Below are positions 14,167 to 45,490 of a stretch of 64,000 bases of DNA, piece by piece. The stretch lies in NCBI GenBank assembly GCA_016180815.1, contig JACPAN010000012.1, positions 1 through 64,000 of the forward strand, given 5' to 3'. This stretch comes from Elusimicrobiota bacterium. Its GTDB lineage: Bacteria; Elusimicrobiota; Elusimicrobia; JACQPE01. Numbering within the stretch: the stretch's first letter is position 1; each line of letters starts with the position of its first letter. The notes beneath the pieces are model-generated. The model was not told where the DNA came from. It saw only the letters and a program-made list of their open reading frames with translations, and did not search any database. The position numbers and the translations under genes are program-made.

Positions 14167-14397
14167 TTATATGTTTGTCGTCACCAACGTTTCCGTGGTT
14201 TGCACGCCGTGGATGGCGCGCACTTCGCGCACCACGAGACCGGAGAGTTTATCGAGCGTATCGGCTTCCGCCGTGATGATGGCGTCCCATCCGCCGAAGG
14301 TCAAATAAACTTCCTGCACGCCTTTGACCTGCCGGATTTGGGAAAGAACTTTTTGCTCCAAGCCTGCGGCCAGTTTGACCAGCACGAAAGCGATCAT
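14167..14397 (-). CDS. Stand-alone RAM (AsnC/Lrp ligand-binding) domain protein
   Basis: This 76-residue protein consists only of the Lrp/AsnC C-terminal RAM fold, with no DNA-binding domain. The features are FVLVKLAAGLEQKVLSQIRQ, VKGVQEVYLTFGGWDAIITA and a final strand GVQTTETLVTT. Stand-alone RAM proteins assemble into rings that bind amino acids or other small molecules; their targets are mostly unknown. It lies 13 bases after the LipM-like gene and 10 before sdhC, with the preceding sequence AGGGAGGTTCC giving a good ribosome site. Its operon position suggests a metabolic sensor, but this is inference. Confidence 0.85.
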   Translation of the reverse strand: MIAFVLVKLAAGLEQKVLSQIRQVKGVQEVYLTFGGWDAIITAEADTLDKLSGLVVREVRAIHGVQTTETLVTTNI

Positions 14398-31673: not shown

Positions 31674-32750
31674 GTGGCTCTCCTCGACGACCTTCTTAAA
31701 AAAATCGTCGAAAAGAAAGGCAGCGATCTTCATATCAAGTCCGGCCTTTCTCCGCACGTGCGCTTGGACGGCGGCATTGTGCGCTTGGACGGCTTCGCGG
31801 CGATGGATGAAGCCGCCATCAAAAAAGAAATTTATCCCTTGCTGACCGAGCGCAAGCGTGAAACGCTTGAAAAAGAGGGGACGGCTGAATTTTCGATCGA
31901 GCGAAGGGATCTAGGCGCGCGTTTCAGGGGCAGTTTTTATTTGGAGCGCGGCCTGTCGGCGGTCACGTTGAGGATGATCCCGAGCCAGATTCCGCCGTTT
32001 GAGTCCTTGCGATTGCCTCCCTCCGTTCTCAAATTAGCGGAGGAACACCGCGGTTTGATCCTGGTGACGGGTCCCACCGGCTCCGGGAAATCGACGACCT
32101 TGGCCGCCATGATCGATCATGTCAACCGGAACATGGCTGAGCACATCGTCTGCCTTGAAGACCCGATCGAATTCGTCCACACCTCGAAAAAGTCGCTGAT
32201 CAGCCAGAGAGAATTGAGCGAAGATTTCCGCGATTTTCCGGCGGCTCTGCGCTATGCGCTGCGTCAGGACCCGGATATGATCATGATCGGGGAATTGCGG
32301 GATTTGGAAACGGTTCGTTTGGCGCTTCAAGCGGCAGAGACCGGGCATTTGGTGATGTCAACCATGCACACCGTGGACGCGGTGCAGACGGTTTCGCGCA
32401 TCATTGATTTATTCCCGCCCCATGAACAGTCGCAGCTTCGCGTGCGTTTGGCCGAGCTTTTGCGCGGCGCCATCGCTTTGCGGCTCATCCGCAAGAAAGA
32501 GGGGGGGCGCCTGCCCGCGTCCGAGGTTTTGGTGGGCACGGCCTTCGTGCGCAAATTGATCGCCGACAATAAAATCTCGGAGATCCCCAAGGCCGTCGAG
32601 CAGGGCGGCCATTACGGGATGCAAAGTTTCCTGCAGAGCCTGCTCGAGGTCTACAACAACGGCTGGGCGGAGCTTGATGAATGCCGGGCCGCGGCCTCCA
32701 ATCCGGATGATTTCATGACCAGGGTGCGCGGCGTCGTCGCCGGTTCATGA
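31674..32750 (+). CDS. pilT: Type IV pilus retraction ATPase PilT
   Basis: This 358-residue secretion-superfamily ATPase starts at GTG, 12 bases after ftsZ. Walker A is GPTGSGKST (133-141); the Asp-box CLEDPIEFVH, Walker B MIGELRDLETVRLALQAAE and the His-box STMHTVDAV follow. The C-terminal AIRLI-like motif appears as GAIALRLI. It depolymerises type IV pili for twitching motility or DNA uptake. No pilin or other pilus gene is visible, so it is a detached member downstream of the division cluster. Confidence 0.94.
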   Translation: MALLDDLLKKIVEKKGSDLHIKSGLSPHVRLDGGIVRLDGFAAMDEAAIKKEIYPLLTERKRETLEKEGTAEFSIERRDLGARFRGSFYLERGLSAVTLRMIPSQIPPFESLRLPPSVLKLAEEHRGLILVTGPTGSGKSTTLAAMIDHVNRNMAEHIVCLEDPIEFVHTSKKSLISQRELSEDFRDFPAALRYALRQDPDMIMIGELRDLETVRLALQAAETGHLVMSTMHTVDAVQTVSRIIDLFPPHEQSQLRVRLAELLRGAIALRLIRKKEGGRLPASEVLVGTAFVRKLIADNKISEIPKAVEQGGHYGMQSFLQSLLEVYNNGWAELDECRAAASNPDDFMTRVRGVVAGS

Positions 32751-33952
32751 GGCTTCAAGAACTCAACATCATCGCCGGTCAACGCGTTTTGCTGCGCGTC
32801 GACTATAACGTGGCTTTAGACGCCGGCCGCGTGGCCGAACCAAAGAGGATTGACGCCACACTGCCCACGCTTAAATGGCTTTTGGAAAAAAAGGCCTCGG
32901 TCATCATCTGTTCCCACCTGGGCCGCCCCAATGGTTGGGAGCCCAAGTATTCGCTGCGTCCGGTTGTTGATGAGTTGAACCAAATTCTCCGGCGTGAGAA
33001 ATTGCCGGTCACGGCATGCTCGCTTTGGGACAAACCTTACCCGTCGCCTGAGCTTGCCGAGCGGGCGAAAACATTGCAGCCCGGCGAAATTTTGGTTTTG
33101 GAAAATCTTCGGTTTCACGCGGGCGAGGAGAAAAACGACGCTGATCTGGCTCGGGGCCTGGCTCAATTAGGCGAAGTGTTCGTTCAGGAGGCCTTCGGCG
33201 CGCTTCACCGGGCCCATGCGTCGACCGATGCTTTGCCCCGACTGATGGCCAAGCGCGCGTTCGGATTCTTGGTCGCTAAAGAGCTCGACACTTTGGGTGC
33301 TTTGTTGACCAATCCGTCCAAGCCTTTTGTGGTGCTCTTAGGCGGCGTCAAGGTTTCGGATAAAATCGGCGCCATTGAAAATTTGCTCAACCGGGGCGTG
33401 GATAAAATTTTAATCGGCGGAGCTCTGGCGTACACGTTTTTGAAATCTCAGGGGCATGAAGTGGGCAATTCGCCGGTTGAGGAAAAATGGGTGCCTCGGG
33501 TTAAAGAGCTGCTGGCCCGCCAGAACGGCTCCAGCCGCATCGTTTTAAGGAAAGACCATTGGATCGCCCAAGGCCTGGACCGGCCCCAGGGAGCCAAGGT
33601 TACGGAAAATCCCGGCGTTCCCTCAGGCTGGGAGGGTTTGGACGTCGGACCGAAAACGTTGGATGTTTTCAGCCGGGAAATTAATAACGCAAAAACTATT
33701 TTTTGGAACGGGCCGGTGGGCGTCATCGAGGTGCCGCCTTTTGACCGGGGCAGTTCGGCCTTGGCCCGGTTGATCGCCGAGCGCACGAAAGCGGGAGCGT
33801 TGACGGTTTTAGGCGGCGGCGACACCATCCACGCCGTCAGCAAGGCCGGCGTTCCAGAAGGAAGCTTTTCTCATGTGTCCACCGGCGGCGGCGCCACGCT
33901 TGAATTTTTGGAAGGGAAAACCTTGCCCGGCGTCGCGGCCATCGCCGGCTAA
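32747..33952 (+). CDS. pgk: Phosphoglycerate kinase
   Basis: This 401-residue glycolytic enzyme transfers phosphate from 1,3-bisphosphoglycerate to ADP. The N-terminal RVDYNVAL, SHLGRPNGW and VLENLRFHAGEEKND motifs, the hinge KPFVVLLGGVKVSDKIGAIE and the C-terminal GGGDTIHAVSKAG and HVSTGGGATLEFLEGK are complete. Its ATG overlaps the pilT stop by ATGA. The NVAL spelling replaces the usual NVPL, a mild oddity. Confidence 0.97.
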   Translation: MRLQELNIIAGQRVLLRVDYNVALDAGRVAEPKRIDATLPTLKWLLEKKASVIICSHLGRPNGWEPKYSLRPVVDELNQILRREKLPVTACSLWDKPYPSPELAERAKTLQPGEILVLENLRFHAGEEKNDADLARGLAQLGEVFVQEAFGALHRAHASTDALPRLMAKRAFGFLVAKELDTLGALLTNPSKPFVVLLGGVKVSDKIGAIENLLNRGVDKILIGGALAYTFLKSQGHEVGNSPVEEKWVPRVKELLARQNGSSRIVLRKDHWIAQGLDRPQGAKVTENPGVPSGWEGLDVGPKTLDVFSREINNAKTIFWNGPVGVIEVPPFDRGSSALARLIAERTKAGALTVLGGGDTIHAVSKAGVPEGSFSHVSTGGGATLEFLEGKTLPGVAAIAG

Positions 33953-34773: not shown

Positions 34774-34850
34774 ATCATTATTTAGCCCGATCCTTTTGAT
34801 AAACTAAAAAAGAATTTTTAATCCGAAACTCTGTTAAGGAGGATATTGCC

Positions 34851-35375
34851 TTGGAGTGGACAAACCGCAGCGCGTACGTTTTGATGAAAGCAAAGCCCGG
34901 CATGGCTGAGAAAGTCTGGAAATCGTTTCAGCAATGCGACGAAGCCATCGGCGCTTGGGTCGTGACCGGCGATTGGGATGTGATCGCTTGGGTGGACGCT
35001 TACTCATGGGACGGCGTCTACGATCTGGTCGCCAAAATGAGAAAGGAAAATTGGATCGAGTCCTCGTCTTCGCATTGGGTGCATCATGGCCATAAAAACG
35101 GCAGTTGGTGGTGGGATTGGCCCGCCGGGGCCTGGGTTCTATGGCGCGACAACAAGCTAAACGGCTCATGGAAAAAGACGACGAACTGGAAATGGGCCGT
35201 CTCCTCCGCCTCCGTTCCCGGCGATTGGGATTGGGTGACCTGGGTCGGGGGGAAGAATTGGAACGAGGTTTGGAATCATGTGCTTGATTTTCAAAAGCCC
35301 GGCTGGCAGACGACGACATTGGTTCCGGTGCGTTCCTGGTGGAACAAATCTTGGGCCAAAAATTGGTGGGGGTAG
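34851..35375 (+). CDS. Tryptophan-rich tandem RAM-like protein
   Basis: This 174-residue protein contains 28 tryptophans, about 16 percent. A TTG start is chosen because TTAAGGAGGAT lies upstream at good spacing. Residues 7-78 match the Lrp/AsnC RAM pattern (AYVLMKAKPGMAEKVW, TGDWDVIAWVDA, a final strand SSHWVHH). Residues 94-161 repeat it more loosely (AWVLWRDNKLNGSW, PGDWDWVTWVGG, TTTLVPV). The bulky tryptophans sit in equivalent places of both repeats and in a WWWDW linker and a C-terminal WW-rich tail. No signal peptide or DNA-binding domain is seen. Function unknown; ligand binding through stacked indoles is a guess. Its 3' end overlaps the next gene by 98 bases. Confidence 0.8.
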   Translation: MEWTNRSAYVLMKAKPGMAEKVWKSFQQCDEAIGAWVVTGDWDVIAWVDAYSWDGVYDLVAKMRKENWIESSSSHWVHHGHKNGSWWWDWPAGAWVLWRDNKLNGSWKKTTNWKWAVSSASVPGDWDWVTWVGGKNWNEVWNHVLDFQKPGWQTTTLVPVRSWWNKSWAKNWWG

Positions 35376-37056
35376 GAACGATTTAACTCGGGTCGTTGTC
35401 GCCGCTTCGGCGGCTCTTTTCCTATGGTGGACAAGCCGCGCCATCAACGGCCTCTCCCTAACTTATGACGAGCCGGTGCAAATTGCCGGCGGCTATGCGG
35501 CCCTAAGCCGTAAGGATTATCACTTTCAGGGATTCGACCATCCGCCGTTGGCGGAAATGGTCTCCGCCGCTTGGTTGTCGATGGCCGGGCGTTCGCACCC
35601 GCTTGTTTTTGATCCGGCCGGCCGGGCTTATCTCGATCATCTGATTTACGAGGTCGCCGATCGCCTGATCTACGGCAGTTCTATCCCCCATGACCTCATT
35701 ACGGCGGCCGGCCGGTGGAGCGGCTGTCTGGTTTTTTTCCCAGTGCTCGCCGTCAGCCTGTTTATTTTCGCCGAACGTTGCCGGCCGGGCTCGGGAGTTT
35801 ACGCCGTTGGGTTGCTTTGCATCGAACCCAACCTTCTGGCCCATGCGGCTTTGGCCACCAAAGATTTCCCTTCGGCCGCGCTGCTGACGGCTTCTACGCT
35901 GTTGACGTTGATCTGGGCGGATCGTCCTTCGGCCAAGGTTTCTTTTTTATTGGGCGTCTCATCGGCCGCTTTAAGTTTGACGAAATACACGAATCTTCTT
36001 TTTTTCCCCGTAGCGTTGCTCTTGTTGTGGCTTGTCCGCAAGCGGTTGTCGACGAAACATTTTCGAGGCGCGGCGCTGGCCGCGGCGTCGTTCGCCGCCA
36101 TGTTTACGCTTGTTTATCAAGGGATTGATTGGCATTTTTATCAAGAGGGCTTGACGGCGACGCTGCGGCGGCTCGATGCCGGGCGCGGGAGCTTTTTCTT
36201 CGGCGACTATTCCCCGACGGGATGGCTGTTGTACTATCCGGCGCTGCTGCTGCTGAAAACCAATATCAGCCACTTGGTCTTGGCCGTCGCAGGCGCCGTC
36301 ATCCTCGGCCGGAATCTGTTGCGCCGGGGCGCCCTCGCGCGCGCCAAGGACAACGGGTATTTGATCGCCTGTCTTTTGATGCCCGTGGCGTTTTTTTTCG
36401 TGACGTCCGTTTCCAAGATTCAGATCGGCCATCGCTACATTCTCCCCGCGTATCCTTTCATCGTGGTATTGGCCGGGGCCGGGCTTAAGGAGTTGCTTTC
36501 GAGAACCCGCAAGATTCAGGCGGTTGCCGTTGTTCTTGTTCTGGCGGGGTTGGTTTCAACGGCGAGATGCTCTCCGTATTTTCTTTCGTATTTCAACGAA
36601 TTGGCCGGAGGTCCGTCGAAAGCCCATCGTTATTTCACCGATTCGAGCGTTGACTGGGGTCAGGGGCTGGCGGCCCTGGCGCGATGGCTGAAGGACCGGG
36701 GCGCCGGGGCTATTTATCTTTCTTATTTCGGCAGCGGCGATCCCGGCGCCTACGGCATCCGCCATGTCCCCGTCGGCGCGGTCGGCAATGTCGCCCGGAC
36801 AGCGGACGCATCGCCGGCGCTGACGGAAAAAAGGCTTTATTTGGCCGTGTCCGTCACGAATTTCCAAAGCACTTATTATTCCCGCAAAGGCGTCTTTGAT
36901 TTTTTGAGGGACCGCCGGCCCGAAGCCTTGATCGCGTATTCCATTTTGATTTATGACATCACGGACGACGGGATGTTGCGTGAGCGCGTGGCTAAGCTGT
37001 TAAATGACGTCGGCCACAAGGATGAGGCCCGGCAACTGGCCTCATTGAAGCGCTAA
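35278..37056 (+). CDS. GT-C family membrane glycosyltransferase (PMT/ArnT-like)
   Basis: This 592-residue protein has about eleven transmembrane helices. The first loop holds the catalytic acidic pair of GT-C enzymes, Asp64-Glu65 in LTYDEPVQIAGG, followed by FDHPPLAEM as in the PMT/ArnT families. A C-terminal periplasmic region contains GHRYILPAYPF and SSVDWGQGLAALARWLKD. It should transfer a sugar from a polyprenyl-phosphate carrier to a lipid or protein; the acceptor is unknown. The only starts before the catalytic loop are ATG 35278 and TTG 35284, both inside the preceding gene, so the overlap of more than 90 bases appears genuine. Confidence 0.85.
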   Translation: MCLIFKSPAGRRRHWFRCVPGGTNLGPKIGGGRNDLTRVVVAASAALFLWWTSRAINGLSLTYDEPVQIAGGYAALSRKDYHFQGFDHPPLAEMVSAAWLSMAGRSHPLVFDPAGRAYLDHLIYEVADRLIYGSSIPHDLITAAGRWSGCLVFFPVLAVSLFIFAERCRPGSGVYAVGLLCIEPNLLAHAALATKDFPSAALLTASTLLTLIWADRPSAKVSFLLGVSSAALSLTKYTNLLFFPVALLLLWLVRKRLSTKHFRGAALAAASFAAMFTLVYQGIDWHFYQEGLTATLRRLDAGRGSFFFGDYSPTGWLLYYPALLLLKTNISHLVLAVAGAVILGRNLLRRGALARAKDNGYLIACLLMPVAFFFVTSVSKIQIGHRYILPAYPFIVVLAGAGLKELLSRTRKIQAVAVVLVLAGLVSTARCSPYFLSYFNELAGGPSKAHRYFTDSSVDWGQGLAALARWLKDRGAGAIYLSYFGSGDPGAYGIRHVPVGAVGNVARTADASPALTEKRLYLAVSVTNFQSTYYSRKGVFDFLRDRRPEALIAYSILIYDITDDGMLRERVAKLLNDVGHKDEARQLASLKR

Positions 37057-37218: not shown

Positions 37219-38832
37219 ATGGCTCGCGCTAAATTTAAGGAAAAAACGGATTCAAATGGCGCCGGTTTAAGCTTTGAACCGGCTCTTTGGGCGGCGGCGG
37301 ATAAGCTTCGCGGCCATATGGACGCCGCTGAATACAAACACGTTGTCCTGGGCCTCATTTTTCTCAAATATATTTCCGATGCTTTTGATGAGCGGCATCA
37401 ATTTTTAATCAAAGAGAAAGAAGCCCATGTCCGAGACGGAAACAAGGGCTTTGGAAACCCCGAAGACCCGGACGAATACCGGGCCGAAAATATTTTCTGG
37501 GTACCCAAAACGGCCCGCTGGCGTCACATTCAAGACAGCGCCAAGCAACCCGTCATCGGCAAGCTGATAGATGACGCCATGGTGGCCATCGAAAAAGACA
37601 ACCGGTCTCTTAAAGGCGTTTTGCCCAAAAGTTACGCGCGCCCCGAGCTCGATAAGCGCCTATTGGGCGAAGTAATCGATCTTATCGGCAAAATCGGCAT
37701 GGGCTATCAAGAAAATCGTTCCAAAGATATTTTGGGCCGGGTTTATGAATATTTTCTTTCTCGATTCGCCAGCGCCGAGGGCAAAAAAGGCGGGCAATTC
37801 TATACCCCTCAATCGGTGGTCAAAATTTTAGTTGAGATGATCACTCCGTACAAAGGCCGGGTTTACGACCCCTGCTGTGGCTCCGGCGGCATGTTTGTGC
37901 AAAGCGAAAAATTTGTCGAAGCTCACGGGGGCGGGCTGAAAGACATCTCCGTCTTTGGACAGGAGTCCAACCCCACCACCTGGAAGCTGGCCAAAATGAA
38001 TTTGGCTATTCGCGGCATTGAAGCGAATCTAGGAGTGGAGAATGCGGACAGCTTTCATCGGGACCAGCATCCTGATCTGAAAGCTGATTTTATTCTCGCC
38101 AATCCGCCCTTTAACATGAGCGATTGGGGCGGGGAGCGCCTGCGCGATGATGTGCGCTGGAAATTCGGCGCTCCCCCGGTCAACAACGCCAACTTCGCCT
38201 GGGTTCAGCATTTCATTCACCATCTGGCCCCCGGGGGCCTGGCCGGATTCGTTTTGGCGAATGGAAGCATGTCCTCCAACACTTCAGGGGAGGGCGAAAT
38301 TCGCAAAAAAATAATCGAGGCCGACTTGGTGGACTGCATGATCGCCCTGCCCGGCCAGCTTTTTTACTCCACCGCCATTCCGGTCTGCCTCTGGTTTATC
38401 GCGCGCGATAAGAAAAACGGAAAATTCCGCGACCGGCGCGGCCAAACTCTTTTCATTGACGCCCGCAAAATGGGTTTTTTGGTGGATCGCGTTCACCGCG
38501 ATCTCAAGGATGAAGAAATCGCCCAAATAGCCGGCGTCTACCACGCCTGGCGCGGCAATGCCCGTCATTCCCGCGAAGGCGGGAATCCAGGCCAATATAA
38601 AGACGTCCCCGGCTTTTGCAAAAGCGCCGCGTTGGAGGAAATCAAAAAGCACGATTATGTGCTCACCCCCGGCCGCTATGTCGGCGCGGAGGAAGCCGAA
38701 GATGACGGCGAACCCTTTGAACAAAAGATGAAACGCTTAACCGCCGAACTCAAAGGCCAATTCGCCGAATCCGCCAAATTGGAATCAGCCATAAAAGAAA
38801 ATTTAAAAAAATTGGGGTATGGCCATGATTGA
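37219..38832 (+). CDS. hsdM: Type I restriction-modification DNA methyltransferase subunit
   Basis: This 537-residue HsdM has an N-terminal helical domain (residues 20-170), then the adenine-specific methylase fold. AdoMet motif I is DPCCGSGGM (217-225) and catalytic motif IV is NPPF (295-298). [17 protein letters not shown] and [10 protein letters not shown] are further hallmarks. Residues around 449-457 (RHSREGGNP) are encoded by an inserted palindromic repeat at 38561-38590 that keeps the frame. The C-terminal coiled region would contact HsdS. It is the first gene of a six-gene run and overlaps the HEPN gene by 14 bases. Two copies with HsdS form the modification enzyme. Confidence 0.96.
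38567..38586. repeat. REP-like palindrome inserted in hsdM
   Basis: ATTCCCGC-GAAG-GCGGGAAT is a perfect inverted repeat within a longer CGTCATTCCCGCGAAGGCGG unit. It matches the dRS3/REP-type dispersed repeats known from Neisseria and many other bacteria, which when translated give the SREGGNP peptide. It sits in frame in the C-terminal part of hsdM. Confidence 0.8.
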
Positions 38833-39247
38833 TTACGAAAAATTTCAAAAATCTCTCAAACAGCTTGAGTTACAGTTTGAAAACTACCAAAGCCCCCACG
38901 AAGGCGGAGCTTTCAACGATTTAGACCGCCAAGCGCTCAAGGAGTCCGTTATTCAGCGATTTGAAACTTGCTACGACACTCTCTGGAAACACCTCAAGCG
39001 CCACCTGATCGAAGAACTGGGCCTGCCCGAAGCGCCGAACAGTCCTAAGCCGGTCTTCCGGCTTGCCGATGAAAACCAACTTTTAGATTCCCGGCTTGAG
39101 CAATGGCTGAAATACTCCGATATCCGCGTTGACACCGCCCATGATTACAGTGAGGAAAAAGCCGACGCTTGCCTCGAAATAATGGCGCCTTTTATAGATG
39201 ACGCCATCGGCCTTTACCAAACCCTCACCGGCAAAACATGGGAGTGA
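38819..39247 (+). CDS. HepT-like HEPN toxin (HI0074 nucleotidyltransferase-substrate-binding family)
   Basis: This 142-residue all-helical protein belongs to the HI0074/HepT HEPN family. The catalytic RNase motif RX4HXY is complete: Arg103, His108 and Tyr110 in [10 protein letters not shown]. Tyr110 is the residue type that MntA partners adenylylate to silence HepT. Conserved HI0074 elements include [17 protein letters not shown] near residues 47-62. Start at 38819, with ATG 38825 equally possible; either overlaps the hsdM stop. It is followed with a 10-base overlap by the gene whose N-terminal domain is the matching nucleotidyltransferase. The Val after Arg103 is unusual, since a polar residue is common there. 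Toxin activity is inferred from the family. Confidence 0.88.
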
Positions 39248-40809
39248 GCCCCGCCATAGACATTACTCCAGAGCAGCGTAAAACCATCCTTGCCCTTTTG
39301 CGCCAACACCTCCCCCAAGTCCTCGTCTGGGCTTACGGCTCAAGGGTGAAATGGACCGCGCGCCCCAATTCAGATTTTGATCTGGTCGCTTTCACTAAAC
39401 CGGAACACGCCGGCCAATTCAGCGCCCTCAAAGAAGCCTTCGAATCAAGCTCCCTGCCATTTCGCGTAGATTTGCTCGCCTGGAACGATCTCCCTGAAAA
39501 CTTCCACCGCAACATTAAAAAAGAATATGTCGTGTTCCAGGAGCCTGAGCGTGAGATCAAAGGCCAGGGCATGTCGGGTGACTGGCGTGAAGCATCTCTA
39601 GGGGATGTCGTGGAAATCAACCCTGATGTCGTAGATAAAGCTTGGCCCTTTACCCATATCCGCTATATCGATATATCTTCAGTCGGTGAAGGCATGATTC
39701 TTGAACCACCCGAACAGGTTCCTCTCTCGAATGCTCCAAGTCGCGCAAAGCGGATCGTGCGACAGGGAGACACCGTCCTTTCCACTGTGCGACCAAACAG
39801 ACGGTCCATGTTCTTCGTTTCAAAGCCTGAGGACGACTGGGTTGTCTCCACTGGCTTTGCAGTTCTTCGACCCAAGCCAGAAAAAATTGACCCTCGGTAC
39901 CTGTATGCTTGCGTCTTTCACAAAAGATTCACCGATTACCTTGTCTCAGTGGAGAAGGGGGCTGCCTATCCTGCAGTTTTGCCTGAGGATATCGCTGAAG
40001 TCCCAATCCCACTTCCGCCGTTAACTGAACAACGCGCCATTGCCCACATTCTGGGTACGCTGGATGACAAGATTGAGTTGAACCGGCGGATGAATGAGAC
40101 GCTGGAGGCCATGGCCCAGGCGATTTTCAAATCCTGGTTCATAGACTTCGACCCCGTCCACGCCAAATCCAAAGGCCGCGACCACGGCCTCCCCAAAGAA
40201 ATCGCCGATTTGTTCCCTGATTCTTTCCAGGACTCTGAATTGGGTAAAGTTCCGGCAGGATGGAGCGTTGGAGCCACTCAAGACCTCGCTGATGTATCCA
40301 GCGGGAAGAGGCCGGACGTCAGGTATCCCGAAGTTTCGGAAGAAGCTCGCGTGCCTCTCTGGGGTGGTAATGGACCGATGGCATTCGTGCCAGAAGCTCT
40401 GATAAATTATCCAGTTCTTCTGACTGGTCGGGTCGGGACGCTCGGGTCTGTTTTTAGAATCACCTCACCGTGTTGGCCTTCCGATAATACGCTTTTCCTG
40501 AAGGCAAACAATCTGTACGCGCTTGAATACCTATTTCTTCATTTAAAGCGCATTGACTTCAATTCTTTGAACAGGGGCTCAACTCAACCCCTCCTGACAC
40601 AAACCGATCTGAAATTACAGCCCGTTTTATTACCGCCGACAGCTATCCTCGAGAGCTTTCATTCAGTTGTGAATGAACTGTACAAAAGGATGGATTCATC
40701 TGAGCATGAATCCCACGCCCTCGCTGCTACTCGCAATGCGCTGTTGCCTAAACTTTTGTCCGGCGAAGTAAAACCTATGGGAATAGAAAAGGCTGCCGAA
40801 AGAGCGTAG
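39238..40809 (+). CDS. hsdS: MntA-like nucleotidyltransferase fused to type I HsdS specificity subunit
   Basis: This 523-residue two-part protein has residues about 8-103 as a minimal nucleotidyltransferase: GS at 34-35 (YGSRVKWTARPNSDFDLV), Asp46 and Asp48 as the DxD pair, and Asp78 in FRVDLLAW as third carboxylate. From residue 114 a full HsdS follows. TRD1 (DWREASLGDVVEINP) is closed by the central conserved region PPLTEQRAIAHILGTLDDKI and NETLEAMAQAIFKSWF. TRD2 (LGKVPAGWS) ends in HALAATRNALLPKLLSGEV. The first start is ATG 39238; GTG 39244 gives a GTGA overlap with the HEPN stop. The frame is uninterrupted across the junction. The antitoxin enzyme is therefore physically tied to the DNA-recognition subunit. 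Confidence 0.92.
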   Translation: MGVSPAIDITPEQRKTILALLRQHLPQVLVWAYGSRVKWTARPNSDFDLVAFTKPEHAGQFSALKEAFESSSLPFRVDLLAWNDLPENFHRNIKKEYVVFQEPEREIKGQGMSGDWREASLGDVVEINPDVVDKAWPFTHIRYIDISSVGEGMILEPPEQVPLSNAPSRAKRIVRQGDTVLSTVRPNRRSMFFVSKPEDDWVVSTGFAVLRPKPEKIDPRYLYACVFHKRFTDYLVSVEKGAAYPAVLPEDIAEVPIPLPPLTEQRAIAHILGTLDDKIELNRRMNETLEAMAQAIFKSWFIDFDPVHAKSKGRDHGLPKEIADLFPDSFQDSELGKVPAGWSVGATQDLADVSSGKRPDVRYPEVSEEARVPLWGGNGPMAFVPEALINYPVLLTGRVGTLGSVFRITSPCWPSDNTLFLKANNLYALEYLFLHLKRIDFNSLNRGSTQPLLTQTDLKLQPVLLPPTAILESFHSVVNELYKRMDSSEHESHALAATRNALLPKLLSGEVKPMGIEKAAERA

Positions 40810-40811
40810 TT

Positions 40812-41348
40812 ATGGATAGTATTTTTCAGGAAAGGTGGGAAAATTTTATTGAGACGCATAAACATCAAGTTCCCGAAGATATTTACCAGGAAATTCAAAA
40901 GATAAACGCACAAGTCGGAACTCCAGGAGGAGGAAAAGTCATCGTAGTGGCTCAGAAGGTGGCGTATAGGACGCTCGATACCTTTCATGCTAAGTGGCTG
41001 GAATTAGCGAAAAATGCCTGGGAACGCGGAGGCTCCAAGTTAAAAACTGAAGGTTTTTTAGCGCATCACTCATCTGCAATAAAAGAGGAAATCCTATTTT
41101 TGCGCAATGCCCCCCACAAACATACCAGCCAATATATTCCGCTGAATGACTTGGAGAAAAAAGCCGAAACTCTCGAATTGGAAGCCAAAGAGCATTTACA
41201 AAACTGGCTGGCTCAGTCTACAAAAGAAAAAGCAGAGCGCCGGTGGCAGCTGGTTTTGACGATTGTTGGGGCTATTCTCGGAGGATTGATATCCGCGCCT
41301 ATTTTTCAAGGAATTTGGCGATTGGTTAAATTTATTTTATGGAGATAA
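40812..41348 (+). CDS. C-terminally membrane-anchored protein of the defence operon
   Basis: This 178-residue protein of unknown family starts two bases after the hsdS stop. Residues 1-145 are soluble, largely helical and charged (VPEDIYQEIQKINAQVG, KKAETLELEAKEHLQNWLAQ). Residues 147-175 form one or two hydrophobic helices rich in glycine and proline breaks (LVLTIVGAILGGLISAP). Tail-anchored topology resembles membrane effectors or sensors of defence systems, but no known domain is seen. It overlaps the SIR2 gene by 10 bases, suggesting a two-gene module inserted between hsdS and hsdR. Base composition is lower in G+C than the flanking chromosome. Confidence 0.75.
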   Translation: MDSIFQERWENFIETHKHQVPEDIYQEIQKINAQVGTPGGGKVIVVAQKVAYRTLDTFHAKWLELAKNAWERGGSKLKTEGFLAHHSSAIKEEILFLRNAPHKHTSQYIPLNDLEKKAETLELEAKEHLQNWLAQSTKEKAERRWQLVLTIVGAILGGLISAPIFQGIWRLVKFILWR

Positions 41349-42400
41349 TACGTCCAGCAGTCTTCATTTTTGGTGCGGGGGCTACCCGTGGAGCGTTTGA
41401 GGATTCAAAGTTCTCGCCGCCTATCGATAGAGATTTTTTTGACATTGCTGGCCAATTGCAGGGCCACGGGACAGATTCACTGGCCAGGCAAGTATTAAAT
41501 TCTGTCTGGGATTTGTACGGAGAAACCCGAGGGATTAGTCTCGAGCGCTACTATAGAGATATCGAAACGCGGGAGGTGATTGGCCGATTTGTTAAGCCGC
41601 CTAATCAGCCGATGCGGTGGGGTAGAAGACGCATGGAGCTGGAGGAGCTGATCCGTCGTGTTTATATACACACTGCTTGTGACACAGAGGGTCCCTCCTT
41701 CAGTCCCAAGGCAAGTAGCATCCATCGAGATATTTTAAAGCACCTTACTGCTGGCGATACTATCGTCACATTCAATTATGATTTGGTGATAGAGGAATCG
41801 TTTGCTCAATCATCTCTTTGGCAACCCACGGATGGCTATGGAGTTAAGGTGCATGGAGGAACTCGGGGATGGTGTCGCAACTGGCTCAAGTCACGTAAAG
41901 AGTCTGAGGCTGAAACAATAACCGAAAGCTCCATTTCCTTGCTCAAGCTACATGGCAGTTTGAACTGGCGTCTTTATAACAACCAGCAAATTAGACTCAA
42001 AGATCGACCATATGTTGTTCGCAGAAATCGAAATAACAAGCCTGGTATAGAAAATATCGCTATTTTGCCACCAGGTTGGAAGAAAGAAGGAATCGAAAGG
42101 CAGCCATACAGCACATTTTGGCGCATGGCTGGTGGTAAACTCCAAAATTGTAAATCAATCGTCATCCTGGGTTATTCGCTTCCAGAAACGGATCTACTTG
42201 CTCAGGCATTATTTGCAGAAGTAATCCGGTCAAGAGCGGCTAGGAGTAGAAGGAATTACTTGAAGCAACTCTATCTGGCTGATCCGAGCGAAACTGTTAA
42301 AGAAAAATTTTCTCGGCTATTTTCGCCAGCACTGGGGCCACTTGGCGAATTATTTAAATACAAAGATATTCGAGAGTTTGCCAAAGATTTTAATGGTTAA
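41339..42400 (+). CDS. SIR2-family (SIR2_2-like) defence protein
   Basis: This 353-residue protein has the SIR2 NAD-binding pattern. FIFGAGATRGAF (residues 9-20) gives the glycine-rich loop and TIVTFNYDLVIE (141-152) the Asn146/Asp148 pair. LLKLHGSLNW (201-210) carries the presumed catalytic His205, and IVILGYSLPETDLL (274-287) is the distal strand. Many phage-defence systems use SIR2-like NADases that deplete NAD on infection; a deacetylase role is less likely without a zinc module. It overlaps the membrane protein gene and precedes hsdR by 21 bases. The region is visibly AT-rich (about 43 percent G+C in a sampled line), suggesting separate origin. Confidence 0.85.
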   Translation: MEIIRPAVFIFGAGATRGAFEDSKFSPPIDRDFFDIAGQLQGHGTDSLARQVLNSVWDLYGETRGISLERYYRDIETREVIGRFVKPPNQPMRWGRRRMELEELIRRVYIHTACDTEGPSFSPKASSIHRDILKHLTAGDTIVTFNYDLVIEESFAQSSLWQPTDGYGVKVHGGTRGWCRNWLKSRKESEAETITESSISLLKLHGSLNWRLYNNQQIRLKDRPYVVRRNRNNKPGIENIAILPPGWKKEGIERQPYSTFWRMAGGKLQNCKSIVILGYSLPETDLLAQALFAEVIRSRAARSRRNYLKQLYLADPSETVKEKFSRLFSPALGPLGELFKYKDIREFAKDFNG

Positions 42401-42421
42401 TCTAATTGCGTATAAATTCTG

Positions 42422-45400
42422 ATGCGCCAAAATTTTTCCGAATCCACTGCTGAAGAAGCCGCGCTGGAATGGCTGAGGGGGCTTGGGTATGAGGTGCGGT
42501 TTGGGCCGGAGATTGCGCCGGAAGAACCCAGGGCGGAGCGGACGGAGTTTGAGCAGATTGTTTTAGAGGGGCGGTTGCGGGAGGCTATTGGGAAAATTAA
42601 TTCCGAGATTCCTGAAGAGGCGCGGGAAGAGGCGGTGCGTAAGGTTTTACGCACGGAGCATCCTAGCCTTACGGAAAATAACCGGCGGTTTCATAAGTTT
42701 TTGACCGATGGCGTGCCGGTGGAATATCAGGCCGAGGGGCGCACGGTGCATGATCAGGTTTGGCTGGCCGATTTTGAGAATTTAGATAACAACGACTGGC
42801 TCGCGGTCAATCAATTCACCGTGATTGAAAACCGCCATGACCGCAGGCCGGATGTGGTGATTTTTATCAATGGCCTGCCCCTGGGCGTTATCGAGCTTAA
42901 AAATCCGGCCGATGAAAACGCCACCATCCGCAATGCCTTTAATCAACTCCAAACTTACAAGGCGCAGATCACATCGCTTTTTACTTACAACGAGGCGTTG
43001 ATTATTTCAGACGGCATTGAAGCACGGATGGGAAGCGTCACCTCCGATTGGGACCGCTTTATGCCCTGGCGCACGGTGGATGGCAAAGATTTGGCTCCTA
43101 CGGGGCTTCCCCAGCTTGAGGTTTTGCTTAAGGGCGTGTTCGATAAACGGCGATTTTTAGATATTGTCCGCCATTTCGTGGTCTTTGAGGAAACTCCAGG
43201 GGGCGTTGCCAAAAAAATCGCGGGCTACCACCAATTTCATGCCGTGGAGAAAGCGGTGGAGAGCACCTTGGCCGCCACGCGTGGGGACCGGCGGGTGGGC
43301 ATTGTCTGGCATACGCAGGGTTCGGGAAAAAGTTTGACCATGGTTTTCTACGCGGGCAAAATCGCCCAGCACCCGGAAATGAAAAATCCAACTCTGGTTG
43401 TTTTGACGGATCGCAATGATTTGGACAATCAACTTTTTGACACTTTTTCAGGTTGCGGTGAAGTCTTGCGCCAAACGCCGGTTCAGGCGGAAAACCGCGA
43501 GCGATTGCAAGAGTTGTTAAAAGTAGCCTCCGGCGGGGTGGTGTTTACCACCATCCAGAAATTTTTTCCTGAAGAAAAAGGCGATAAATTCCCTTCGCTT
43601 TCAGCGCGGCGCAATATTGTCGTCATCGCGGATGAAGCGCACCGAAGCCAGTATGATTTTATTGACGGCTTCGCCAAACACATGCGGGATGCTTTGCCCG
43701 GCGCTTCCTTTATTGGGTTTACGGCTACGCCCATCGCAAAAACGGACCGGAACACCACCGCGGTTTTTGGCAATTACATTGATGTTTATGACATTCACCG
43801 TTCCATCGAAGATAAGGCGACAGTTCCGATTTACTATGAAGCCCGTTTAGCCAAGCTGGGGCTCAAGGAAGAGGAAAAACCCAGGATCGATCCCGAATTC
43901 GAGGAAGTAACAGAGGGTGAGGAAGAGCCCGAAAGACGCAGGCTTCAAACCAAGTGGTCGCGCCTGGAGGCTTTGGTGGGCTCCAAACGGCGCATCGAGC
44001 TTGTGGCCCAAGATATTGTGAATCATTTCGAGAGACGCTTGGAGGCCATGGAGGGCAAAGGGCTCATCGTCTGCATGAGCCGCAGAATTTGCGTGCAACT
44101 TTATCAGGCTATCATGAAGTTGAGGCCCCAGTGGCACAACTCGGAGGACGATCAAGGATTTATCAAAGTGGTCATGACGGGCGCGCCGGCGGACCCTGTG
44201 GACTGGCAGGAGCATATCCGCAATAAAGAACGGCGGCGCGCTATTGGGGATACGTTTAAAAAACCCGCTTCTCCCATTAAGTTGGTCATTGTGCGGGACA
44301 TGTGGCTGACGGGTTTTGATGTGCCCTGCTTGCACACCATGTATTTAGACAAACCCATGCGGGGGCACGGGCTGATGCAGGCCATTGCCCGCGTTAACCG
44401 GGTATTCAAAGACAAGCCGGGTGGATTGGTGGTGGATTATTTGGGAATCGCCCAGGAGCTTAAGAAAGCTTTGGCGGATTATTCCAATAAAGACCGCGAG
44501 AAGGCCGGTATTGACCAAGAGGTGGCGGTCACAGCTTTGTTTGAGAAATATGAAGTGCTCAAAAGCATGTTTCATGGGTTTAATTACTCCGAATTCTTTA
44601 AAGGCGCGCCGCAGAGGCGTTTGCAGGTGATGGCCGAGTCCATGGAGCATGTGCTCAAGGTTAAGGACGGCAAGGAACGGTTTATGGCGGTTGTGACCCA
44701 GCTATCCCAGGCGTTTGCTTTGGCGGTGCCGCATGAGAAAGCGCTGGCTTTGAGGGAAGAGATCGCGTTCTTCCAAGCGATCCGGGCGGCTCTGGCTAAA
44801 AGCGCGGGCGCCGATGGGCCGGATGTGAAAAAGGACCGCCTAGAGGTCGAATCCGCTATCCAGCAAATCGTGTCCAAAGCGATTTCATCCGACGGCGTGG
44901 TGGATATTTTCAAAGCGACGGGGCTTAAAAAGCCGGATATTTCGATTTTATCTGATGAATTTTTGGAAGAAATCCGGGGGATGCCTTACAAAAACTTGGC
45001 GTTGGAACTTTTGAAAAAACTTTTAAGCCAAGAGATTAAATTGCGCGAGCGGAAATTTTTAGTTCAATCCCGTTCTTTTGCCGAAATGCTGGAAAAATCC
45101 GTCCGGGAGTATCACAACCGTACGATTGAGGCGGCGCAGGTAATCGAGGCGATGATCCGGCTGGCCAAAGAAATGCGGGAAGCGCATCGCAGAGGCGAAA
45201 AGATGGGTTTAGGCGAAGATGAACTGGCTTTCTACGACGCCCTAGAGGTCAACGATAGCGCGGTTAAAGAGTTGGGAGATAAAACCCTCCAAGCCATCGC
45301 GCGCGATCTGGTCCAAATCGTGCGGCAAAACACAACAATTGATTGGACGGTGAAGGAAAGCGTCCGGGCTAATCTACGGCGACTGATTAAGAGGCTTTTG

Positions 45401-45490
45401 AATAAGCATGGCTATCCGCCCGACAAGCAGGAGAAGGCCGTTAAAACCGTTTTGGAGCAGGCGGAGTTAATCGGCAAGGATTGGTCGTGA
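42422..45490 (+). CDS. hsdR: Type I restriction enzyme endonuclease/translocase subunit
   Basis: This 1022-residue HsdR has an N-terminal PD-(D/E)xK nuclease with Asp144, Glu158 and Lys160 ([19 protein letters not shown]). The SF2 translocase carries Walker A TQGSGKS (298-304), ADEAH at 403-407, GFTATPI and the late motifs [18 protein letters not shown] and [11 protein letters not shown]. The C-terminal 350 residues are helical, for docking to the methylase core. All catalytic motifs are intact, so the system looks active. It is the last gene of the operon, 64 bases before tRNA-Thr. Confidence 0.96.

What the first reader, a model, noticed from the sequence alone, without database searches (positions are those of the whole stretch)
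34851..35375. Protein with 28 tryptophans in 174 residues built on two RAM-like repeats
Seen: about 16 percent Trp, with GDWDVIAWV (40-48) and GDWDWVTWV (124-132) in equivalent positions of two repeats that follow the Lrp/AsnC RAM pattern, a WWWDW linker and a Trp-rich tail; a strong ribosome site supports translation. Trp is normally near 1 percent and costly. Inference: an aromatic cage for ligands or surfaces, a redox or light-related role, or a Trp-sensing protein whose own synthesis is the sensor.
Basis: partly seen in the sequence, partly recalled or inferred. Interest (0 to 1): 0.82.

Follow-up and report, generated by a model that had tools for sequence, protein, structure and literature searches.

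The report
Trp-rich fused RAM-domain protein family
A small protein that is one-sixth tryptophan turns out to be a real, selected family shared by some sediment archaea and one bacterial phylum, built from two fused copies of an amino-acid-sensing type of domain, with its tryptophans held in place across both domains of life for a function nobody has yet tested.

Summary
The ORF at 34851-35375 encodes 174 residues with 28 Trp (16.1%); the window mean is 1.4%. It is not a chance ORF: 33 intact full-length homologues occur in 10 genomes of the window's bacterial phylum (taken to be Elusimicrobiota) and 23 Thermoplasmatota. All have 12-17% Trp, 16 of 33 invariant positions are Trp, and median dN/dS is 0.14.

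The N-half is a RAM domain, the C-half a diverged copy, and there is no HTH. AlphaFold pLDDT is 92-94. Each half matches stand-alone RAM proteins; the whole chain best matches the fused barrel NirDL, but its HXYXR motif is absent in all 33.

Best reading: a single-chain RAM pseudo-dimer binding a small molecule in a Trp-walled barrel. The architecture is well supported; barrel closure and ligand binding are inferred. Trp sensing has weak circumstantial support: trpA is absent in 31/31 carriers, but many non-carriers lack Trp genes too, the gene has no constant partner, and Trp positions, not just number, are fixed. Phyla beyond these two were barely sampled.

The parts
34851..35375 (+). Coding sequence of the Trp-rich protein (174 aa, 28 Trp, TTG start)
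   Evidence: ORF; 33 intact homologues, 16 of 33 invariant positions Trp; median dN/dS 0.14
34836..34842 (+). Shine-Dalgarno sequence AAGGAGG, 8 nt before the TTG start
   Evidence: Read from the sequence; archaeal homologues also carry GGAG/GGTG-type sites upstream
34851..35096 (+). Repeat 1 (residues 1-82): RAM domain, strand-helix-strand-strand-helix-strand
   Evidence: Pfam AsnC_trans_reg in 26/26 members; PDB profile match to stand-alone RAM 2zbc, E 3.7e-8; AlphaFold model
35106..35120 (+). WWWDW segment (residues 86-90) closing repeat 1; W86, W87 and W88 invariant
   Evidence: 33-sequence alignment
35121..35324 (+). Repeat 2 (residues 91-158): diverged second RAM-like domain
   Evidence: hhalign of the two halves E 2.6e-7 versus shuffles; cross-hits in most archaeal carriers; AlphaFold models
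35325..35369 (+). Trp-rich tail (residues 159-173): strand, short helix and W163, W164, W168, W172, W173, all invariant; probably the counterpart of the WWW segment of repeat 1
   Evidence: Alignment; secondary structure of both models; the counterpart relation is inference

Best explanation
This is a soluble, single-chain pseudo-dimer made by duplication and fusion of a RAM (Lrp/AsnC ligand-binding) domain, without a DNA-binding domain (shown by sequence statistics and prediction). By analogy with its structural neighbours, the two RAM sheets should face each other and form one alpha+beta barrel (inferred; model coordinates could not be inspected). The conserved Trp occupy positions that are not Trp in the ordinary RAM proteins compared, lie on strands and helices alike, and form a Trp-rich cap at the end of each repeat. 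The most likely job is binding a small, probably aromatic or planar ligand in or beside that barrel, as a sensor, carrier or enzyme (inferred). Four Trp occupy equivalent positions in both repeats, which suggests that the single-domain ancestor was already Trp-rich before duplication (inference).
For: N-half is RAM. The two halves are homologous. pLDDT 92.2 and 94.0 for a bacterial and an archaeal member. One half fits RAM protein 2e1a with TM 0.88-0.89 (by target length) and rmsd 1.0-1.2; the whole chain best fits sirohaem decarboxylase NirDL, E about 5e-6 and TM 0.67-0.68 (by query length), in both models. Published work places sirohaem decarboxylase among the ferredoxin alpha+beta barrels with its ligand in the barrel cavity, fused in one chain in the 4CZC enzyme (PMC4835899). 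33 invariant residues, 16 Trp, plus polar invariants R6, S7, D49, H75, S118, S121, D127 and S162. Trp at equivalent positions 29/113, 42/126, 47/131 and 53/137, hypergeometric P 0.003. Purifying selection. Ordinary single RAM proteins found in the archaeal carriers and the one in this window have 0-1 Trp.
Against: Trp columns are spread over the whole protein, which also fits a purely structural role. Whole-chain matches have high rmsd (about 5-10 A), so the mutual arrangement of the two halves is less certain than the fold of each half. The P value for equivalent Trp uses the same alignment that favours Trp-Trp matches. Gene neighbourhoods give no constant partner.
Confidence: 0.5

Rival explanations
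1. A tetrapyrrole (haem or sirohaem-type) binding protein or enzyme of the fused alpha+beta barrel group, with Trp stacking on the macrocycle.
For: Whole-chain Foldseek hits to NirDL, chlorite dismutase and coproheme decarboxylase in both models. Position 57 on helix alpha2 is His in 22 and Tyr in 11 members, and His143 on the fourth helix is present in 27 of 33; published haem ligands in this group sit on such helices (PMC4835899).
Against: HXYXR of sirohaem decarboxylase is absent in 33/33. No strictly conserved His at any published ligand position; the only invariant His is H75 on strand 4. No Pfam match to the chlorite dismutase family or PF17805 among members. The sirohaem decarboxylase domain PF17805 occurs in 0 of 10 bacterial carriers and 2 of 9 archaeal carriers tested.
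Confidence: 0.2
2. A protein linked to tryptophan supply in tryptophan auxotrophs: a Trp reserve, or a signal protein that can be made only when Trp is plentiful.
For: trpA absent in 31 of 31 carriers while 14 of 14 control genomes ring. IGPS absent in 18 of 19 carriers tested, including this nearly complete genome. In three archaeal loci a TrpY-family regulator and a TrpB-like enzyme lie upstream.
Against: Many non-carriers also lack these genes: IGPS in 1/10 carriers versus 112/331 other genomes of the phylum, P 0.17; trpA 0/10 versus 5/10, P 0.03, neither corrected for kinship. A store needs Trp number, not 16 invariant positions. The archaeal genes have their own TATA-like boxes and no TGTACA box in the proximal promoter. 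The TrpB-like neighbour is seen in only 3 loci.
Confidence: 0.13
3. A regulatory subunit that joins Lrp-type or single RAM proteins into mixed oligomers and so tunes transcription without binding DNA itself.
For: A stand-alone RAM protein forms a hetero-octamer with a full-length Lrp-type protein in vitro (review PMC2995911). Carriers have ordinary single RAM proteins as well.
Against: If the halves are already paired within the chain, the usual RAM dimer surface is occupied. No conserved regulator gene nearby.
Confidence: 0.12
4. A chance or decaying ORF with a biased composition.
For: Extreme composition; one archaeal copy (L033) has two stops at Trp codons.
Against: 33 intact full-length homologues, 16 invariant Trp, low dN/dS, Shine-Dalgarno sites, high-confidence fold.
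Confidence: 0.01

Closest known systems
Stand-alone RAM (SARP) proteins, e.g. FFRP-DM1 (2e1a), STS042 (2zbc), TTHA0845 (2djw); Pfam PF01037
   Same: Same domain fold (TM 0.77-0.89 by target length for one half) and detectable sequence similarity; no DNA-binding domain
   Different: Two fused copies per chain, 12-17% Trp instead of 0-1 Trp in the single RAM proteins compared here, and an added Trp-rich segment at the end of each repeat
Sirohaem decarboxylase NirDL / AhbA-AhbB
   Same: Related to AsnC-type RAM domains; two RAM domains pair in one functional unit (one chain in NirDL); best whole-chain fold match
   Different: No HTH parts and no HXYXR motif; no PF17805 match among members
Chlorite dismutase / coproheme decarboxylase (PF06778)
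   Same: Single chain with two ferredoxin-like domains of the alpha+beta barrel superfamily
   Different: Shorter (173 versus about 240 residues in the matched chains), no conserved haem-ligand His on the third helix, no Pfam match
Lrp/AsnC transcription regulators
   Same: RAM domain (LysM and Lrp models give weak hits)
   Different: No HTH; tandem RAM

Membership tests
RAM / Lrp-AsnC ligand-binding domain (PF01037) | Sequence match to the domain | tested here: met
   26/26 members, best E 8.5e-12; the window protein alone is under the gathering score (21.7 versus 25 bits)
RAM / Lrp-AsnC ligand-binding domain (PF01037) | Ferredoxin-like fold | tested here: met
   AlphaFold pLDDT 92-94; half-chain rmsd 1.0-1.3 A to solved single RAM proteins
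Lrp/AsnC transcription regulator | N-terminal HTH DNA-binding domain | tested here: not met
   RAM starts near residue 7; no HTH in Pfam or NCBIfam scans or in the models' secondary structure
Stand-alone RAM protein (SARP) | One RAM domain per chain, pairing with a second chain | tested here: not met
   Two homologous halves in every intact homologue
Ferredoxin alpha+beta barrel superfamily, fused type | Two ferredoxin-like domains in one chain | tested here: met
Ferredoxin alpha+beta barrel superfamily, fused type | The two sheets close into one barrel | tested here: inconclusive
   Whole-chain matches to fused barrels have TM 0.46-0.68 by query length but rmsd about 5-10 A; coordinates not available for inspection
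Sirohaem decarboxylase (AhbA/B, NirDL) | Conserved HXYXR motif facing the cavity | tested here: not met
   0 of 33 members; motif described in PMC4145669
Sirohaem decarboxylase (AhbA/B, NirDL) | Sequence match to PF17805 | tested here: not met
   Not among the families matched by the 26 members at E up to 0.1
Chlorite dismutase / HemQ | Proximal His on the first helix of the C-terminal domain | tested here: not met
   No column with conserved His in residues 105-111; ligand position from PMC4835899
IsdG-type haem barrels | Haem-ligand His on helix alpha2 of a ferredoxin-like domain | tested here: inconclusive
   Residue 57 on alpha2 is His (22) or Tyr (11); not shown to sit at the ligand position
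Any of the above | Ligand binding or enzyme activity | not testable with these tools
   Needs purified protein

The most novel reading that the evidence does not exclude
A Trp-sufficiency switch: in organisms that cannot make Trp, a RAM-derived protein whose synthesis needs 21-29 Trp accumulates only when Trp is plentiful, and signals this state through its ligand-binding barrel or by joining other RAM proteins.
Probability: 0.08. Interest if true: 0.85.

Novelty: new variant of a known kind. Interest (0 to 1): 0.6.

Why it matters
A cytosolic protein family with 12-17% Trp, half of whose invariant residues are Trp, kept across an archaeon-bacterium divide and carried by organisms that appear unable to make Trp, is at odds with the usual view that Trp is avoided because of cost. 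It adds a new form to the alpha+beta barrel superfamily (fused RAM without HTH), and its strong intrinsic absorbance and fluorescence (predicted extinction coefficient 158,470 M-1 cm-1) make ligand screening direct.

Tried and rejected
Phage, plasmid and IMG/VR searches found no relative, and PHROGs gave none, so a mobile-element origin has no support. Operon logic: neighbours differ among genomes. Recurring ones are fructose-bisphosphate aldolase, an epimerase, a LeuC/LeuD-like pair, TrpY, a TrpB-like enzyme and PdxS in related archaea, and pgk in two bacteria; none is constant, so no functional partner is claimed. TrpY control of the gene: TGTACA boxes occur between trpY and the trpB-like gene but not in the 200 nt before the Trp-rich gene. 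Sirohaem decarboxylase and Cld/HemQ membership were rejected on motif and ligand residues. Single-repeat Trp-rich relatives were sought in 80 genomes of the archaeal class and none was found. A shared ligand-facing role for all Trp was rejected because the columns are spread over all elements. Literature searches found no description of the family. The one genome-contig scan used close-relative patterns only, so other phyla are not excluded. Model coordinates are not given by the tools, so no cavity analysis was possible.

Full report
Observation. The ORF at 34851-35375 (+) starts with TTG 8 nt after AAGGAGG and encodes 174 residues, 28 of them Trp. The mean of 58 non-overlapping ORFs in the window is 1.38% Trp and the next highest is 3.9%. 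The largest ORF on the other strand (34834-35319) has no support and probably follows from the CCA-rich complement of Trp codons.

Homologues. One scan of 84,980 species with close-relative patterns gave five Thermoplasmata MAGs at 46-49% identity over most of the length. Whole-genome searches gave 25 of 293 Thermoplasmatota genomes, the same 25 among the 80 genomes of one class, and 10 of 341 genomes of the window's own bacterial phylum, including the window's genome. All are single copy and about 173 residues in the matched part. Two of the 25 archaeal copies (one cut by a contig end, one with two stops) were left out of the 33-sequence set. In that set archaeal-bacterial identity is 36-53%, Trp content 12-17%, and there are 33 invariant positions, 16 of them Trp: W3, W23, W36, W47, W86-88, W95, W115, W131, W137, W163, W164, W168, W172 and W173. 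Median pairwise dN/dS is 0.14 and the tree separates the two phyla with full support. At least one transfer between the domains is the simplest account; direction is unknown. Contamination is unlikely: one archaeal copy lies on a 1.8 Mb chromosome and two bacterial copies lie beside pgk.

Architecture. Residues 7-80 match RAM in Pfam and in solved stand-alone RAM proteins. The two halves are homologous: hhalign E 2.6e-7 with score 40.6, against at most 14.6 in 40 shuffles, with cross-hits of a C-half profile to the N-half in most archaeal carriers. Trp columns coincide at 29/113, 42/126, 47/131 and 53/137, so the ancestor was probably Trp-rich before the duplication. AlphaFold gives pLDDT 92.2 and 94.0 for a bacterial and an archaeal member with nearly the same secondary structure. 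Each repeat appears as strand-helix-strand-strand-helix-strand, then an extra strand and a Trp-rich segment (WWW86-88; W168, W172, W173). Foldseek matches one half to single RAM proteins with rmsd 1.0-1.3 A and the whole chain to NirDL, chlorite dismutase and coproheme decarboxylase. Published analysis treats these as ferredoxin alpha+beta barrels formed by pairing or fusion, with sirohaem in the barrel cavity in sirohaem decarboxylase (PMC4835899).

Function. No HTH was found. The HXYXR motif (PMC4145669) is absent in all 33, and no strictly conserved His sits at a published haem-ligand position; H57/Y57 and H143 leave haem binding open. I therefore prefer a small-molecule-binding barrel with aromatic walls, ligand unknown. 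Shown: conservation, selection, repeat structure, RAM identity of the N-half, predicted fold. Inferred: barrel closure, cavity, ligand.

Trp economy. trpA is absent from all 31 carriers tested, while 14 of 14 control genomes have it. IGPS is absent from 18 of 19 carriers tested, and the hit in the other one is partial. The hosts thus appear to be Trp auxotrophs. This is not specific: IGPS is found in only 113 of 341 genomes of the bacterial phylum, and the contrast is weak. In three archaeal loci the order is trpY, trpB-like, Trp-rich gene (one locus has a further ORF between the last two), with TGTACA boxes between trpY and trpB-like, whereas the archaeal Trp-rich genes have their own TATA-like boxes without such a box nearby. 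That TGTACA is the TRP box is from memory; the paper read confirms TrpY and TRP boxes but not the letters (PMC6737238).

Verdict. A genuine family, undescribed as far as the open-access library shows: a new variant of a known kind. The strangeness, fixed Trp at 12-17% in apparent Trp auxotrophs, is real; the mechanism is open.

Noticed in passing
window 14170-14397 (-): An ordinary 76-aa stand-alone RAM protein (PF01037, E 2.5e-11) beside what look like succinate dehydrogenase genes; a likely example of the parental domain type.
   Followed up: partly
L004:5001, L006:5001, L007:1046: Three related archaeal homologues appear to start with ATA: a GGTGGTGG site lies just upstream and no ATG, GTG or TTG is in frame in the 20 codons before it.
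   Followed up: partly
L033:1236-1754 (-): One archaeal copy has a TGA and a TAG, both at conserved Trp codons (residues 42 and 141): decay or assembly error.
   Followed up: no
L049:4454-4597, L051:5910-6332, L063:3131-3267: TGTACA boxes, single or paired, lie between a TrpY-family regulator and a TrpB-like enzyme in archaea that lack trpA: possibly Trp-regulated indole salvage.
   Followed up: partly
window 32747-33952; L066:8581-9861 (-): Phosphoglycerate kinase lies upstream of the Trp-rich gene in both carriers of this bacterial family.
   Followed up: partly
window 35278-37056 (+): A membrane glycosyltransferase-like ORF (PF03901) overlaps the end of the Trp-rich gene as called; its true start is probably downstream of 35375.
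   Followed up: no
window 37219-45490 (+): Type I restriction-modification genes (HsdM and HsdR by Pfam) with extra ORFs of unknown function between them (40812-42400).
   Followed up: no
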